NCBI GenBank assembly: GCA_903871935.1
Contig: CAIQIQ010000172.1
Span: forward strand, 1-64,000
DNA: 64,000 nucleotides
Direction: 5' to 3'
Source of the DNA: an uncultured Phycisphaerales bacterium
GTDB lineage: Bacteria > Planctomycetota > Phycisphaerae > Tepidisphaerales > Tepidisphaeraceae
A program made the position numbers and the translations under genes. A model generated the notes under the pieces. The model saw only the letters and a list, made by a program, of their open reading frames with translations, had not been told where the DNA came from and did no database searches. Of the stretch, positions 15,994 to 21,057 are shown one piece after another (position 1 is the stretch's first letter; each line of letters starts with the position of its first letter).

Positions 15994-16002
15994 TGGTATG
16001 AT
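15994..16002 (+). promoter_or_regulatory. Extended -10 promoter of the WXG100/FtsK operon
   Basis: TGGTATGAT matches an extended -10 element (TGn plus TATGAT, 5 of 6 to consensus). It lies 24 nt before the ATG of the first gene. An imperfect -35 (TGCACT) sits about 18 bp upstream. The predicted leader would be very short but includes AGGGAG at 16013-16018. Confidence 0.5.
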
Positions 16003-16026: not shown

Positions 16027-16299
16027 ATGTCCAAAGCCAATGTCGATCCCGCGGAGCTGCGACGATTTGCCAACGACCTCAAGCGTTTCACCGCCGACCT
16101 CGAATCCCTGCTCGGGCAACTGCACTCGCGGATGAACAACCTGGAAGCCACCTGGCGCGACCAGGAACAGCGTAAGTTCGCCGAAGCATTCGCTGAGACC
16201 GCCAAGAATCTTTCGGTCTTCGTCAATGCCGCCTCAGAACATTCAGCGTTCTTGAACAAGAAAGCAACGCTGGTCGAACAATACTTGAGGCAAAGGTAG
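16027..16299 (+). CDS. WXG100-family protein (EsxA-like)
   Basis: This is a 90-residue, almost wholly helical protein. The size, the lack of a signal peptide and the helical-hairpin pattern with a central turn (LEATWRDQEQRKF, about residues 40-52) are those of WXG100/Esx proteins; the turn reads W-R-D instead of W-x-G. It starts at an ATG with AGGGAG upstream and is first in an operon that ends with an EccC-like FtsK ATPase. Esx proteins are exported as dimers by type VII systems or act as chaperone-like partners. The usual C-terminal YxxxD/E export signal is absent; the protein ends YLRQR. Confidence 0.75.
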   Translation: MSKANVDPAELRRFANDLKRFTADLESLLGQLHSRMNNLEATWRDQEQRKFAEAFAETAKNLSVFVNAASEHSAFLNKKATLVEQYLRQR

Positions 16300-16308
16300 C
16301 GTGCGGCT

Positions 16309-16944
16309 ATGTCCGAAGGGGCTAAAGTCGATGATCTTGATGTGTTCCGGGTGGTTAAGGCGGCCATGCTGAAATTCCGCAGCCATGCCGATACCGCCCT
16401 GCTCAACGCTGATGCGGAGATGAGCCGAACCAAATCGTGGCTGGAAGGTGAACAACTCGCCTACTGGCAGGTACAGATCCGCAAACGGACTGAAGCGGTC
16501 GGCCGCGCCAAAGAGGCCATCCGGCAGAAGCAGTTGTTCAAAGATTCCTCAGGACGAACGCCTTCGACATTCCATGAAGAGAAGATTCTGCGAGCTGCCG
16601 TCGCCGCCCTGCAACACGCCGAGGAGCGCCTGGTGCGCACGAAGAAGAGCGTGCCGCTGCTGGAGAAGCAAATCGAGAACTATCGCAGTGGCGTCCAGGG
16701 ACTGGGGTCCATGCTGGTCAGCGATTTCCCCAAGGCAGTCGCCGCCCTGGAACGCATGGCGTCCACGCTCGATGAATACGTTACTCTATCGTCCGGCATC
16801 AGCACCCCGGAAGGCACTCCAGCAGCGCCGCTGGATATACCCGGAAACATGGATCGCGGCGGCGAGTCCGCCGATCAGGCGATGCCCTCTCCCTCCTCGA
16901 CACCCGATCAACCAAAGAAAGGAACCGACGATGTCACTGGTTGA
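16309..16944 (+). CDS. Coiled-coil protein of the WXG100/FtsK operon, unknown function
   Basis: I do not recognise the family. The 211 residues are mainly amphipathic helix: about residues 10-150 are charged and heptad-like (KSWLEGEQLAYWQVQIRKR, AALQHAEERLVRTKK), followed by FPKAVAALERMASTLDEY and a Pro/Ser-rich, probably disordered tail (about 170-211). It has no signal peptide or membrane segment. It starts 9 bp after the WXG100 gene and overlaps the next gene by 14 bp, so the products are probably made in fixed ratio. By position it could be an LXG/WXG-like substrate, a chaperone or a structural part of the export machine. Confidence 0.6.
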   Translation: MSEGAKVDDLDVFRVVKAAMLKFRSHADTALLNADAEMSRTKSWLEGEQLAYWQVQIRKRTEAVGRAKEAIRQKQLFKDSSGRTPSTFHEEKILRAAVAALQHAEERLVRTKKSVPLLEKQIENYRSGVQGLGSMLVSDFPKAVAALERMASTLDEYVTLSSGISTPEGTPAAPLDIPGNMDRGGESADQAMPSPSSTPDQPKKGTDDVTG

Positions 16945-17143
16945 GAGCCGCGGCCAACTCACCAAGGTATTCCGCGATCTGATGAACCGATGGATGATGG
17001 TGCGTTCTGACTGGAATGACGCCCGCGCCCAGTATTTCGAGCAGCAGTACCTCTTGCCCCTTGAGATCGAGGTTCGCAAGGCTGTTGCCGCAATGGATCA
17101 CATGAACATTGTTCTGAACAAGATCACGCAAGACTGTGAGTAA
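16931..17143 (+). CDS. Second small helical protein of the WXG100/FtsK operon
   Basis: The 70-residue frame starts at the ATG at 16931, with AAAGGA about 8 nt upstream, and overlaps the end of the coiled-coil gene by 14 bp. A longer open frame in the same phase reaches further up but is only the shadow of that upstream gene. The protein is predicted helical, with SDWNDARAQYF at about residues 26-36 resembling a WXG-type turn (W-N-D), like the W-R-D of the first gene. It may be the heterodimer partner of the 90-residue protein. It ends 5 bp before the ATPase gene. Confidence 0.6.
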   Translation: MSLVESRGQLTKVFRDLMNRWMMVRSDWNDARAQYFEQQYLLPLEIEVRKAVAAMDHMNIVLNKITQDCE

Positions 17144-17148
17144 AAGCA

Positions 17149-20100
17149 ATGACCGTACCCGCCACCACGAAGACTGCCATCGCGGCGAATCCGCCTATCG
17201 CCGAGGATCCCCAGCGCAAGCAGCTTCAGCAGCTCACCACCCTGTGCATTGAGTGTGCCCAGGATGAGCAGAAGATCGAAGCCGACCATGAGCAACAGCT
17301 TGCTGAACACCAGCAGCGCATCCGCCACGCCCGCACTCAGAATGAACAGAACCGTCAGAAGAACCTCACCGCCATCGACCAACGCCGCGACGAAAAGCTT
17401 GTCCGCATCGAGGAACGTTACTCAACCGATTCCGCCAGCCTCGACCAGAAAACCCGGGAGACCCGCCAGAGCATCGAAAACAACAAGCTCTCCAGCGACG
17501 AACAGGTAAAGAAGAAGACGGAACAGGCTCGCTGGCTGGCCGAGAGTGTACTCGAGGCCGTCCAGACTCAGGTAGAGATCGAGTCACGCCAGGCCAAACA
17601 GCAGTATGCCACACACATCGCGGAGATCGACCACATTTCCAATTCGCTCGACGCGGCGCGAACGCGCCTGGAGCAGATGGAAATCGCATTCGAACCGCTG
17701 GCCGGTGAGGAGATAGGCCGCCAGATCGATGAGAAACCCGACGAGATCTACAAGGAACAACTGGCCAAAGCCGCCGAGCGGCTCGAAAGCCTCGGAAAGC
17801 TGCGGCTGCCTCGCGTCGTTGCCGGCGGAACACCCTACCTCGCGGGCATCCTGCTCTGCCCGACTATTACGGCCGGCATCGCCTACATTATGCCGCCCGG
17901 GAAAGCCTCGTGGATCGGGGCGGCCGTTGCCGCCGTGCTGGCAATCCTGGGCTGCATTGTTGTCTCCATCCAACTCCGTCGCAAGGCTCGCGCGCAGGTG
18001 GTTGGCATCTGCGTGCCCCTGTTGCAGAGCCTTGACCTCGCGCGCCGCGCCAATGAAAGCGGCTTCACCCGCGGTGAAGCGCAGCGGAAGCAGCGCGAGC
18101 ATGATGAACGCAGGAAGTGCGCTCTGGAAGTCGAAGGCGCTCGAGACAAGGCAAGGCCCCTGCAGACGCAGGCCGCCGAAACGCGATCCCGTCTTCTTGC
18201 CGAGCTGGATGAAAACTCATCTCTGGCTGCGCACAAGCTCGCCCAGGGCCGCACCGACCGCGTTGCCGAACTGACGGAACTTCACCGCTCTGCCACGGAG
18301 GCTGCCGAACACGCTTACGCCCACACCAAAGCCCGAATCGATGCAGATGATCAATCCGGCAGTTCCAGGATCCAACACGAGTACGAGCAGCGCAGCACCA
18401 ATCTCCAGAATCGCTGGAACGGCGGCCTGAAGACTCTGGCCCGCTTGCTCGCTGATGCCGACCACGCCCCCCCCGCTCCACTCTCCTGGGCGCCCGAAGC
18501 CTGGGAGCAGTGGCGCAGCCCGAAGGAGTTTCCTGGCTCCATCCCATTTGGCAAACTTCAGGTTGACCTGCGCACTCTTACCGCGCACGTGCCCCAGCGC
18601 CTTGCCCTGCCTGATGCCATCACCATTCCCGCCGTCCTCGCCTTCCCGCAGCGCGGCTCCATGCTGATCGAAACCGACCACGCCAGCCGCGCCCAGGCCA
18701 TCAACATTGCCAGCATGGTTGTGGCTCGCCTGCTGACCCATCTCCCCGCCGGCCGCGCCAAGCTCACCATTATTGACCCGGTCGGCCTGGGTCAAAGCTT
18801 TGCCGGCTTCATGCACCTCGCCGACCATGACGAGTCGCTCGTGGGTGGCCGTATCTGGACCGAAAATGAACACATCGAACAGCGCCTCGCCGATCTCACC
18901 GAACACATGGAAACCGTGATCCAGAAGTACCTCCGCAACGAATACCAGACCATCGACCAGTACAACGCCCAGGCGGGCGAACTGGCCGAACCCGTGCGCT
19001 TCCTCGTCATCGCCGATTTCCCCACCGCCTTTGAGACCGAATCGCTGCGCCGGCTTGCCAGTATCGCCACCAGCGGCGCCCGTTGCGGTGTCTACATGAT
19101 CATTATTCGCGACACCCGCCAGCAACTCCCGGCCGGCTCGCGCTACGAGGAACTGGTCGCACGTTCAATCTACCTGCGCATCAAGGAGGGCCGCACCACC
19201 TGGATCGACGATGTCTTCTCCCGTTTCCCGCTGACGCTGGATACGCCACCCGACGAGAAGATGCTGACCAGCGTGATGGACCTGGTCGGCCGCGCTGCCC
19301 ACGAAGCCAAGCGTGTTGAAGTTCCCTTCGATACCATTGCCCCCGGCGCCGCCAGACTCTGGAGTGCCAGTTCCCGCGAAGATCTCAAGATCGCTATCGG
19401 CAAGTCTGGCGCCACGCGCCTCCAGTCACTGCGCCTCGGCGTCGGCGTCGCCCAGCACGCGCTGATCGCCGGCAAGACCGGATCGGGTAAATCAAACCTG
19501 ATGCACACCATCGTCACCAATATGGCGATGTGGTATTCGCCTGATGAAGTGGAGTTTTATCTCGTCGACTTCAAGAAGGGCGTCGAGTTCAAGGCCTACG
19601 TCACCCAGCGCCTGCCCCACGCCCGCGCCATCGCTGTCGAGTCCGACCGCGAGTTCGGCCTCAGTGTTCTGCAGCGTGTCGATGCCGAACTCACCCGCCG
19701 CGGCGAACTATTCCGGGCGGCCGGAGTTCAGGAAATTGCGACATACCGGCAGAACACCAGGCAGCGGCTCCCGCGCACAGTTCTGCTCATCGATGAATTC
19801 CAGGAGTTCTTCTCGGAAGATGACAAACTCGGCCAGGAAGCCGCGGTCCTGCTCGATCGCCTCGTCCGCCAGGGACGTGCCTTCGGCGTTCACCTGGTCC
19901 TTGGTTCACAGACCATCGGCGGCTCCTCAGGACTCGCCCGCAGCACTCTCGGGCAGATGGCTGTCCGCATTGCCCTGCAGTGCAGCGAAACCGATTCGCA
20001 GCTCATTCTCGGCGACAACAACTCCGCCGCCCGCCTGCTCTCGCGCCCCGGCGAAGCAATCTACAACGACGCGGGGGGTCTGGTTGAATCCAACAGTCCC

Positions 20101-21057
20101 TTCCAGATCGCTTTCCTCCCCGATGAGCAGCGCGAACGCTATCTGGAGCTTGTGCAGGAGCGTACACGCAGCAGCGGCATCGAAATCGCGCCGTCGGTCG
20201 TCTTCGAAGGCAACGCCCCCGCCGATCTCCACAAGAACGCCCGCCTCATGCTCCTGCTCCATTCGCCTACGCGCCCAGCGCCCAGCCACGCCGTCCTCGG
20301 CTGGATGGGCGAACCCGTCTCCATCAAGGATCCCACCGCCGCCATCTTCCGACCCCAGAGCGGTGCGAACCTCCTCATGGTCGGCCAGCAGGATGAGCTG
20401 GCCCTCTCCATCATGTGTTCGGTCATGATCTCTCTCGCCGTCCAACACGCACCCGATGCCGCCAGGCTCGTTATTCTCGACGGTACTCCCGCCGACTCTC
20501 CCCTCTCCGACACTCTCTCGCGCACCACCGAGGCTCTGCCCCTACCATCCCGGAACATCTCTTACCGCGATGTGGATGTTGCCCTGAACGAACTCGTCGA
20601 AGAACTCGACTCCCGCATCACCGAATCGCATGACCGACACGATGCGGTCTACCTCTTCGTCTACGCGATTCAGCGTTATCGGACTCTCCGGCATCAGGAG
20701 GAGTCCTTCAGTCTCTCCAGCGAGGAGAAGAAACCGCAAGCCGATAAGCAGCTTGCCCGCCTGATCACCGAAGGCCCATCTCTGGGCATCCACGTCATCG
20801 CCTGGGCCGACACCGCCGTCACCCTCGATCGAACCTTCGAACGCGGCGTCCTCCGCGAGTTTGACCACCGCGTTCTCTTCCAGATGAGCGCCACCGACTC
20901 CAGCAACCTGATCGACTCCCCCGCCGCCAACAAACTTGGCCAGTTCCGCGCCCTGTCATATAGTGAAGAACAAGGCACCGCCGAAAAGTTCCGGCCGTAC
21001 GAAATCCCCACCCCCGTCCTGCTGGAGGAAGTCCGCGTTGCTCTGGCCAATAGGTAG
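17149..21057 (+). CDS. EccC/EssC-like FtsK/SpoIIIE ATPase with three ATPase modules
   Basis: The 1302-residue protein has a long charged coiled coil (about 30-215), two adjacent membrane helices (226-248, 254-276), a second coiled coil (about 280-420) and three tandem ATPase-like modules. The middle one is intact: Walker A GKTGSGKS at 775-782, Walker B LLIDEF at about 879-884, and GSQTIGGSSGLARSTLGQM after it. The first (about 480-730) has lost its P-loop (ETDHASRAQ near 505) but keeps a Walker-B-like FLVIADF; the third (about 1060-1302) has GQQDELALS instead of a P-loop. Membrane helices followed by three ATPase modules match type VII motor proteins. It ends an operon of two small WXG-like proteins and a coiled-coil protein. 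Plain chromosome-segregation FtsK has one motor and a gamma domain, so that is unlikely. Confidence 0.82.
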   Translation: MTVPATTKTAIAANPPIAEDPQRKQLQQLTTLCIECAQDEQKIEADHEQQLAEHQQRIRHARTQNEQNRQKNLTAIDQRRDEKLVRIEERYSTDSASLDQKTRETRQSIENNKLSSDEQVKKKTEQARWLAESVLEAVQTQVEIESRQAKQQYATHIAEIDHISNSLDAARTRLEQMEIAFEPLAGEEIGRQIDEKPDEIYKEQLAKAAERLESLGKLRLPRVVAGGTPYLAGILLCPTITAGIAYIMPPGKASWIGAAVAAVLAILGCIVVSIQLRRKARAQVVGICVPLLQSLDLARRANESGFTRGEAQRKQREHDERRKCALEVEGARDKARPLQTQAAETRSRLLAELDENSSLAAHKLAQGRTDRVAELTELHRSATEAAEHAYAHTKARIDADDQSGSSRIQHEYEQRSTNLQNRWNGGLKTLARLLADADHAPPAPLSWAPEAWEQWRSPKEFPGSIPFGKLQVDLRTLTAHVPQRLALPDAITIPAVLAFPQRGSMLIETDHASRAQAINIASMVVARLLTHLPAGRAKLTIIDPVGLGQSFAGFMHLADHDESLVGGRIWTENEHIEQRLADLTEHMETVIQKYLRNEYQTIDQYNAQAGELAEPVRFLVIADFPTAFETESLRRLASIATSGARCGVYMIIIRDTRQQLPAGSRYEELVARSIYLRIKEGRTTWIDDVFSRFPLTLDTPPDEKMLTSVMDLVGRAAHEAKRVEVPFDTIAPGAARLWSASSREDLKIAIGKSGATRLQSLRLGVGVAQHALIAGKTGSGKSNLMHTIVTNMAMWYSPDEVEFYLVDFKKGVEFKAYVTQRLPHARAIAVESDREFGLSVLQRVDAELTRRGELFRAAGVQEIATYRQNTRQRLPRTVLLIDEFQEFFSEDDKLGQEAAVLLDRLVRQGRAFGVHLVLGSQTIGGSSGLARSTLGQMAVRIALQCSETDSQLILGDNNSAARLLSRPGEAIYNDAGGLVESNSPFQIAFLPDEQRERYLELVQERTRSSGIEIAPSVVFEGNAPADLHKNARLMLLLHSPTRPAPSHAVLGWMGEPVSIKDPTAAIFRPQSGANLLMVGQQDELALSIMCSVMISLAVQHAPDAARLVILDGTPADSPLSDTLSRTTEALPLPSRNISYRDVDVALNELVEELDSRITESHDRHDAVYLFVYAIQRYRTLRHQEESFSLSSEEKKPQADKQLARLITEGPSLGIHVIAWADTAVTLDRTFERGVLREFDHRVLFQMSATDSSNLIDSPAANKLGQFRALSYSEEQGTAEKFRPYEIPTPVLLEEVRVALANR

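What the first reader, a model, noticed from the sequence alone, without database searches (positions are those of the whole stretch)
16027..21057. Minimal WXG100/FtsK operon: candidate type VII-like export system of a planctomycete
Seen: a 90-residue W-R-D protein, a 211-residue coiled-coil protein, a 70-residue W-N-D helical protein and a 1302-residue ATPase with two membrane helices and three ATPase modules, closely packed on one strand behind an extended -10 promoter. Known: type VII systems pair WXG100 proteins with EccC/EssC motors that have this triple-module layout. Inferred: a reduced secretion system. None of EccB, EccD, EccE, mycosin, EsaA or EssB homologues is nearby, the small proteins lack YxxxD/E, and only the middle ATPase has a P-loop. 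Also distinctive are the long coiled coils on both sides of the membrane helices.
Basis: partly seen in the sequence, partly recalled or inferred. Interest (0 to 1): 0.82.

Follow-up and report, generated by a model that had tools for sequence, protein, structure and literature searches.

The report
Stand-alone type VII-like four-gene operon
A compact set of four genes that looks like a stripped-down type VII protein-export machine sits in this planctomycete and is kept as a unit across planctomycetes and verrucomicrobia, a two-membrane group where such machines are hardly studied; the family was predicted in 2012, but this membrane-anchored, mostly inherited four-part form and its swappable 'cargo' gene are described here.

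Summary
The four genes are real and packed within 5 kb: WXG100 protein (90 aa), long helical-hairpin protein (211 aa, 'CC'), second W-x-D protein (70 aa, 'W70'), and a 1302-aa ATPase with two membrane helices and three RecA-like modules, only the middle one with a P-loop. The order WXG-CC-W70-ATPase holds in 54 of 58 class loci and in 50 of 80 named loci from Planctomycetota, Verrucomicrobia and a few other labels. No other gene travels with it. The ATPase tree mostly follows host families. WXG and ATPase co-occur in 75 genomes and occur alone in 5 of 248. AlphaFold plus Foldseek put the ATPase nearest EccC/EssC, clearly ahead of FtsK. The kind is not new: solo WXG genes with a three-module, middle-active ATPase were noted in 2012, planctomycetes included, and again beside CoCoNuT loci in 2024. 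New here are the membrane helices, the fixed four-gene unit, mainly vertical inheritance, and a modular middle gene: a nuclease with adjacent immunity gene (Helicobacter plasmid), apparent zincins, an Imm33-like domain, or nothing, as here. I favour an export motor handling a WXG-CC-W70 helical complex, analogous to LXG-Lap1-Lap2. Export itself is unproven.

The parts
15994..16002 (+). TGGTATGAT, extended -10-like element 25 nt before the first start codon (weak evidence)
   Evidence: about one such match expected by chance in the window
16027..16299 (+). WXG100 protein, 90 aa, W-R-D turn; only WXG100 found in this genome
   Evidence: PF06013 E 9.6e-14, above cut-off; HP0062 3FX7 4.2e-8 by phmmer, 5.8e-12 by profile
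16309..16944 (+). CC: long two-helix hairpin (helices 11-76 and 88-164) with a low-confidence 45-residue tail; occupies the 'cargo slot'
   Evidence: AlphaFold2 pLDDT about 95-99 in the helices; orthologues in 54 of 58 loci
16931..17143 (+). W70: 70-aa second WXG100-like protein, invariant W-x-D, near-invariant C-terminal Cys
   Evidence: similarity to WXG100 proteins weak but consistent
17149..21057 (+). Motor ATPase, 1302 aa, EccC/EssC-like
17206..17808 (+). N-terminal charged coiled-coil-like region of the motor (about residues 20-220)
   Evidence: read from the sequence; not modelled
17833..17982 (+). Two transmembrane helices with almost no loop between (residues 229-278)
   Evidence: hydropathy; hydrophobic segment(s) at the same place in all full-length class orthologues
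18046..18468 (+). Second coiled-coil-like region (about residues 300-440)
   Evidence: read from the sequence; not modelled
18601..19347 (+). Module 1: RecA-like, no P-loop; family signature IDPVGLGQ.FAGFMHLAD...HMETVIQKYLRNE...YN.QAGE.AEPYRFLVIADFP
19348..20148 (+). Module 2: the only catalytic module (Walker A 19471-19494, Walker B D882/E883)
20206..21054 (+). Module 3: RecA-like, no P-loop

Best explanation
This is a stand-alone, membrane-anchored type VII-like motor with its own helical substrate set. The ATPase sits in the inner membrane by a two-helix hairpin, probably as a hexamer, with both coiled coils and all three RecA-like modules in the cytoplasm; only the middle module burns ATP. 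The WXG and W70 proteins act like the two small targeting partners (Lap1/Lap2) of LXG toxins: they bundle with the long helical hairpin of CC, and the complex is presented to the motor, which moves CC (and perhaps WXG) across the inner membrane. In relatives the C-terminal part of the CC-slot protein is a toxin; in most PVC genomes, this one included, it is a disordered tail or an Imm33-like domain, so the exported piece is probably a surface, envelope or signalling protein rather than a toxin. Shown: gene content, conservation, co-occurrence, folds of CC and motor, single active module, variable slot. Inferred: hexamer, topology, complex formation, export, cargo identity.
For: Motor: NCBIfam EccCa E 3e-36 and EssC 1.3e-30; model pLDDT 88.8; best PDB folds are EccC (4nh0, 8.4e-32) and EssC (4lya, 7.3e-22), with FtsK motors at 1.6e-14. 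Middle module nearest EccC D1 (hhalign 2e-22), then FtsK (6.5e-20). WXG: PF06013 above cut-off. Two TM helices kept across the class. Obligate partnership: 75 genomes with both, 5 with one, of 248, mostly incomplete genomes, and still together where the operon is split. Slot logic: Helicobacter plasmid WXG - WHH/colicin-DNase protein - SUKH immunity - 77 aa - motor; Caballeronia plasmid WXG - 436 aa - 113 aa - 76 aa - motor; planctomycete G089 with an HExxH C-terminus on a CC-like protein; Imm33-like C-terminus in long PVC CCs. Published parallel: LXG effector plus two WXG100-like Lap proteins form a presecretion heterotrimer for EssC (PMC9600955).
Against: No export has been shown for any member. 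No EccB/D/E, mycosin, EssB or EsaA partner travels with it, so the conduit is unexplained, and passage through an outer membrane more so. No YxxxD/E or Lap1-type FxxxD signal in the small proteins. The related CoCoNuT-linked ATPases lack TM helices (PMC11090510), as do most plasmid relatives apart from weak hydrophobic stretches, which argues for a cytoplasmic job in those. The profile link between CC and the Helicobacter or Caballeronia slot proteins is below significance. W70's kinship to WXG100 is weak (37%).
Confidence: 0.52

Rival explanations
1. A cytoplasmic-side conflict or defence module: the motor and WXG-like adaptors act on nucleic acid or on an internal toxin-like CC protein inside the cell, as suggested for TerY-P and CoCoNuT neighbourhoods; the membrane helices only tether it.
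For: Relatives lie in TerY-P-type clusters (VWA, PP2C, STK, CARF) and beside CoCoNuTs (PMC11090510); several relatives lack clear TM helices; the middle module also scores with the defence ATPases SspH and mad8; nuclease in the slot.
Against: The PVC form keeps two TM helices, is not beside defence genes, shows no recurring neighbour, is mostly vertically inherited and has no nuclease in the slot.
Confidence: 0.25
2. A DNA- or division-related translocase of the FtsK type with helical accessory proteins.
For: FtsK_SpoIIIE domain; on the middle module alone FtsK scores nearly as well as EccC D1; one orthologue lies just after mraY.
Against: The genome already has an ordinary FtsK; three-module architecture; fold search prefers EccC/EssC by many orders of magnitude; obligate WXG100 partner.
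Confidence: 0.08
3. A canonical type VII system whose remaining parts lie elsewhere in the genome.
For: The genome is a draft (172 contigs, 92% complete).
Against: EssB family absent from the own genome with a working control; no conserved neighbour in 138 loci; motor far below the EccC and EssC equivalog cut-offs. The EccB search had no positive control.
Confidence: 0.07
4. CC is not cargo but a structural part: a periplasmic or membrane-spanning hairpin that, with WXG and W70, forms the conduit itself.
For: CC is obligate and toxin-free in PVC genomes; very long hairpin; no other conduit gene.
Against: CC has no signal peptide or TM helix in its sequence; in relatives the same slot holds toxin domains.
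Confidence: 0.08

Closest known systems
[quoted passage not shown] 2012, PMC3482391, Table 1 note 6)
   Same: Solo WXG, three-module motor with only the middle module active; planctomycetes and verrucomicrobia named there
   Different: That note gives no four-gene unit, no TM helices and no slot; it calls them mobile, whereas the tree here mostly follows host families
EssC-like ATPase operon beside Type III-A CoCoNuTs and TerY-P clusters (PMC11090510; H. pylori v225d in PMC4978471; Caballeronia L110)
   Same: Middle-active three-module motor, N-terminal coiled coil, two WXG100-like proteins, coiled-coil protein between them
   Different: There: no TM helices in the motor, coiled coil fused to a D-ExK nuclease, next to VWA/kinase/phosphatase genes. 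Here: two TM helices, no nuclease, no such neighbours
H. pylori HP0062 / HP0066
   Same: HP0062 is the best solved-structure match of the WXG protein and also has W-R-D; it sits near an FtsK/SpoIIIE gene
   Different: HP0066 itself was not compared; the related Helicobacter plasmid motor is 823 aa and lacks the N-terminal half
T7SSa/T7SSb and EccC/EssC motors
   Same: WXG100 partner, TM pair, three RecA-like modules
   Different: No EccB/D/E, EssA/B, EsaA or YukD-like partner gene found beside it; one active module; long coiled coils; no YxxxD/E
LXG-Lap1-Lap2 effector sets of T7SSb (PMC9600955)
   Same: Long helical protein flanked by two small WXG100-like proteins, variable C-terminal domain in relatives
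   Different: No LXG family match; the motor is in the same operon; no toxin domain in the PVC form

Membership tests
WXG100 (PF06013) | Pfam score above the curated cut-off | tested here: met
   WXG: 51.9 bits against 27.3. W70 gives no Pfam match
WXG100 (PF06013) | W-x-G in the turn | tested here: not met
   W-R-D in WXG and W-x-D in W70 across the family; HP0062 also has WRD
WXG100 (PF06013) | Helical hairpin of about 100 residues | tested here: inconclusive
   Not modelled for WXG or W70; end-to-end profile match of WXG to the solved hairpin HP0062
Type VII substrate | C-terminal YxxxD/E | tested here: not met
   Absent in WXG and W70 alignments
EccC / EssC | NCBIfam equivalog cut-off | tested here: not met
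   125 of 509 bits (EccCa), 106 of 778 (EssC), 90 of 347 (EccCb)
EccC / EssC | Three tandem RecA-like modules | tested here: met
   Model; 4nh0 aligned over 938 columns, though TM-score only 0.39
EccC / EssC | Two TM helices before the modules | tested here: met
   Hydropathy
EccC / EssC | More than one Walker-competent module | tested here: not met
   Only the middle module; three EccCs examined here have three Walker-like motifs
T7SSa / T7SSb | EccB/D/E + mycosin, or EssA/EssB/EsaA | tested here: not met
   No recurring neighbour; YukC/EssB absent; EccB search had no positive control
Solo-WXG three-module ATPase family (2012 note) | Single WXG gene with middle-active three-module motor | tested here: met
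Solo-WXG three-module ATPase family (2012 note) | Mobile | tested here: not met
   Tree needs 14 family changes, minimum 12, shuffled 34; housekeeping neighbours
CoCoNuT / TerY-P EssC-like module | Motor without TM helices, beside VWA/kinase/phosphatase genes | tested here: not met
LXG-Lap set | LXG domain with C-terminal toxin, Lap1 FxxxD | tested here: not met
   No LXG match, no toxin domain, no FxxxD
Secretion system | Motor-dependent export | not testable with these tools
   needs wet-lab work

The most novel reading that the evidence does not exclude
A complete four-gene type VII-like export system native to two-membrane PVC bacteria, in which the ancestral toxin slot has been turned into a resident hairpin protein (bare or with an Imm33-like domain), so that the machine now serves an ordinary cell-surface or signalling role instead of killing.
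Probability: 0.3. Interest if true: 0.78.

Novelty: new variant of a known kind. Interest (0 to 1): 0.57.

Why it matters
Type VII secretion is studied almost only in Gram-positive bacteria and mycobacteria, with motors that need several membrane partners. A self-contained, widely inherited four-gene version would show the smallest set that can work and make 'what is essential for type VII export' testable, in bacteria with two membranes. The interchangeable middle gene also gives a ready way to find new cargo and immunity pairs: read whatever lies between the WXG gene and the small W-x-D gene.

Tried and rejected
Choosing between EccC and FtsK by a tree of the middle module: three separate groups in an unrooted tree cannot decide. 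One-to-one mapping of the three modules to EccC D1-D2-D3 or to DUF-D1-D2: unsupported, since the flanking modules show only weak similarity to EccC D2. Foldseek for CC: only generic coiled coils, no hit at E 0.001. Promoter claim: not better than chance. Defence-family assignment: PADLOC hits are to the ATPase domain only, apart from a coiled-coil match to ZorA. Search for CC or WXG paralogues elsewhere in the genome: none. EccB search: no positive control, so uninformative. An EccC region of a Mycobacterium avium plasmid was fetched as a hit but not used; Streptomyces EccCs were used instead. Anantharaman et al. 2012 (PMC4104200) is not held, so its content is known only through later citations.
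Full report
Observation. The first protein is a true WXG100 member (PF06013, 51.9 bits, cut-off 27.3), closest among solved structures to H. pylori HP0062, which also carries W-R-D instead of W-x-G. The 70-aa protein has no Pfam match; profile comparisons link it weakly but repeatedly to WXG100 proteins. The 211-aa protein has no family match of its own and is predicted with very high confidence to be one long helical hairpin, residues 11-76 and 88-164, with a low-confidence tail. The 1302-aa protein carries two hydrophobic helices at 229-278 and one P-loop at 775-782.

Motor. NCBIfam prefers EccCa (E 3e-36) and EssC (1.3e-30), but far below the equivalog cut-offs. A model of residues 441-1302 built from 49 orthologues (mean pLDDT 88.8) shows three RecA-like modules. 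Its best PDB matches are T. curvata EccC (8.4e-32) and EssC structures; FtsK motors follow at 1.6e-14. The global TM-score to EccC is only 0.39, so the modules are alike while their arrangement differs. The middle module is closest to EccC D1, FtsK is nearly as close, and modules 1 and 3 are only weakly related to any EccC domain. A tree cannot settle EccC against FtsK. Module 1 holds the family's strongest signature and has no P-loop.

Distribution. The motor has orthologues in 21 of 26 genomes of the order, 78 of 248 of the class and 60 of 392 drawn across the phylum. Fifty-four of 58 loci examined in the class carry all four genes in the same order, as do 50 of 80 named loci, among them Phycisphaerales, Gemmataceae, Isosphaeraceae, Pirellulales and Verrucomicrobia; many of the rest are cut by contig ends. 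No other gene recurs beside the operon. The WXG gene was found in 77 and the motor in 78 of the same 248 genomes, both in 75 (relatedness makes the Fisher p of 4e-57 only descriptive). Where the motor stands alone, the WXG gene is elsewhere in the same genome: with CC and W70 in G016, G098 and G208, apparently alone in G012 and G152. The motor tree follows host families (14 changes, minimum 12, shuffled mean 34), which fits mainly vertical descent rather than a mobile element. In this window the neighbours are housekeeping genes.

The slot. Plasmid relatives of the motor show the same parts with a changed middle gene. In Helicobacter sp. NHP19-012 it is a protein with a WHH/colicin-DNase C-terminus, followed by a SUKH (SMI1/KNR4) immunity gene. 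In Caballeronia sp. SBC2 it is a 436-aa coiled-coil protein whose C-terminus looks, by eye, like a PD-(D/E)xK nuclease (no Pfam hit), followed by a 113-aa gene, inside a VWA/PP2C/kinase/CARF cluster. In planctomycete G089, beside a divergent motor and two WXG genes, a CC-like protein ends in an HExxH region that resembles a zincin. In the PVC operons the slot protein ends either in a tail (71 of 108) or, in 35 of 37 long forms, in one shared domain that Pfam calls Imm33-like. So the hairpin is the constant part and the C-terminus is exchangeable, but in the PVC lineage it is not visibly a toxin.

How it probably works. Published work on LXG effectors shows a long helical domain bound by two small WXG100-like proteins (Lap1, Lap2) as a presecretion heterotrimer for EssC (PMC9600955). 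The WXG-CC-W70 trio has the same composition and is encoded with its own motor. I therefore propose that the trio is the substrate complex and the ATPase an inner-membrane motor. Complex formation, the conduit, crossing of the outer membrane and the cargo's role are all inferred. The main rival is a cytoplasmic conflict module, because CoCoNuT-linked relatives lack membrane helices (PMC11090510) and most plasmid relatives show no clear TM pair.

Known or new. Zhang et al. 2012 already noted solo WXG genes with a three-module, middle-active ATPase in planctomycetes, verrucomicrobia and others, calling them apparent mobile versions of T7SS (PMC3482391). The CoCoNuT paper describes the same parts in another setting, and PMC4978471 calls WxG + FtsK a minimal type VII set in H. 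pylori. A 2024 review of T7SS variants, restricted to Gram-positive bacteria, showed no such type in the passages searched (PMC11217815). This is therefore a new variant of a known, experimentally untested kind.

Noticed in passing
L227:6505-12176 (G089): Planctomycete variant locus: divergent motor (1141 aa), two tandem WXG proteins, a CC-like protein with an HExxH C-terminus (possible zincin toxin), a 137-aa ORF (possible immunity) and a 90-aa W70-like ORF.
   Followed up: partly
L112:584-9636 (GenBank MT836827, 'Bacteriophage sp.', human gut): ThiF/E1-like gene, EssC-like motor (1423 aa) and a W-x-D hairpin protein with an HELGH zincin-like C-terminus, next to a serine recombinase and an integrase; looks more like an integrative element than a phage.
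   Followed up: partly
L232:7041-13568 (G349): WXG gene, then a separate 119-aa two-TM protein, then a TM-less 1006-aa motor and a 983-aa membrane protein: the membrane part of the motor is split off as its own gene.
   Followed up: partly
window 16931-17143 and orthologues: W70 proteins end in a near-invariant [RQ]-x-D-C; role of the conserved C-terminal cysteine unknown.
   Followed up: no
L049 (G016): Motor gene placed directly after murF-like and mraY-like genes, with its WXG-CC-W70 partners on another contig (L223:6283-7413).
   Followed up: partly
G178:C3, G094:C232, G098:C16, G208:C61: Motor orthologues with one in-frame stop (TAG or TGA); sequencing error or decay not distinguished.
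   Followed up: no
L093, L096, L099, L100 downstream of the motor: A 1300-1450 aa gene on the opposite strand recurs next to the motor in family f21 only.
   Followed up: no
L110:14217-18532: DUF1887 CARF protein directly after the motor in the Caballeronia plasmid cluster, before the VWA/PP2C/kinase triad.
   Followed up: no
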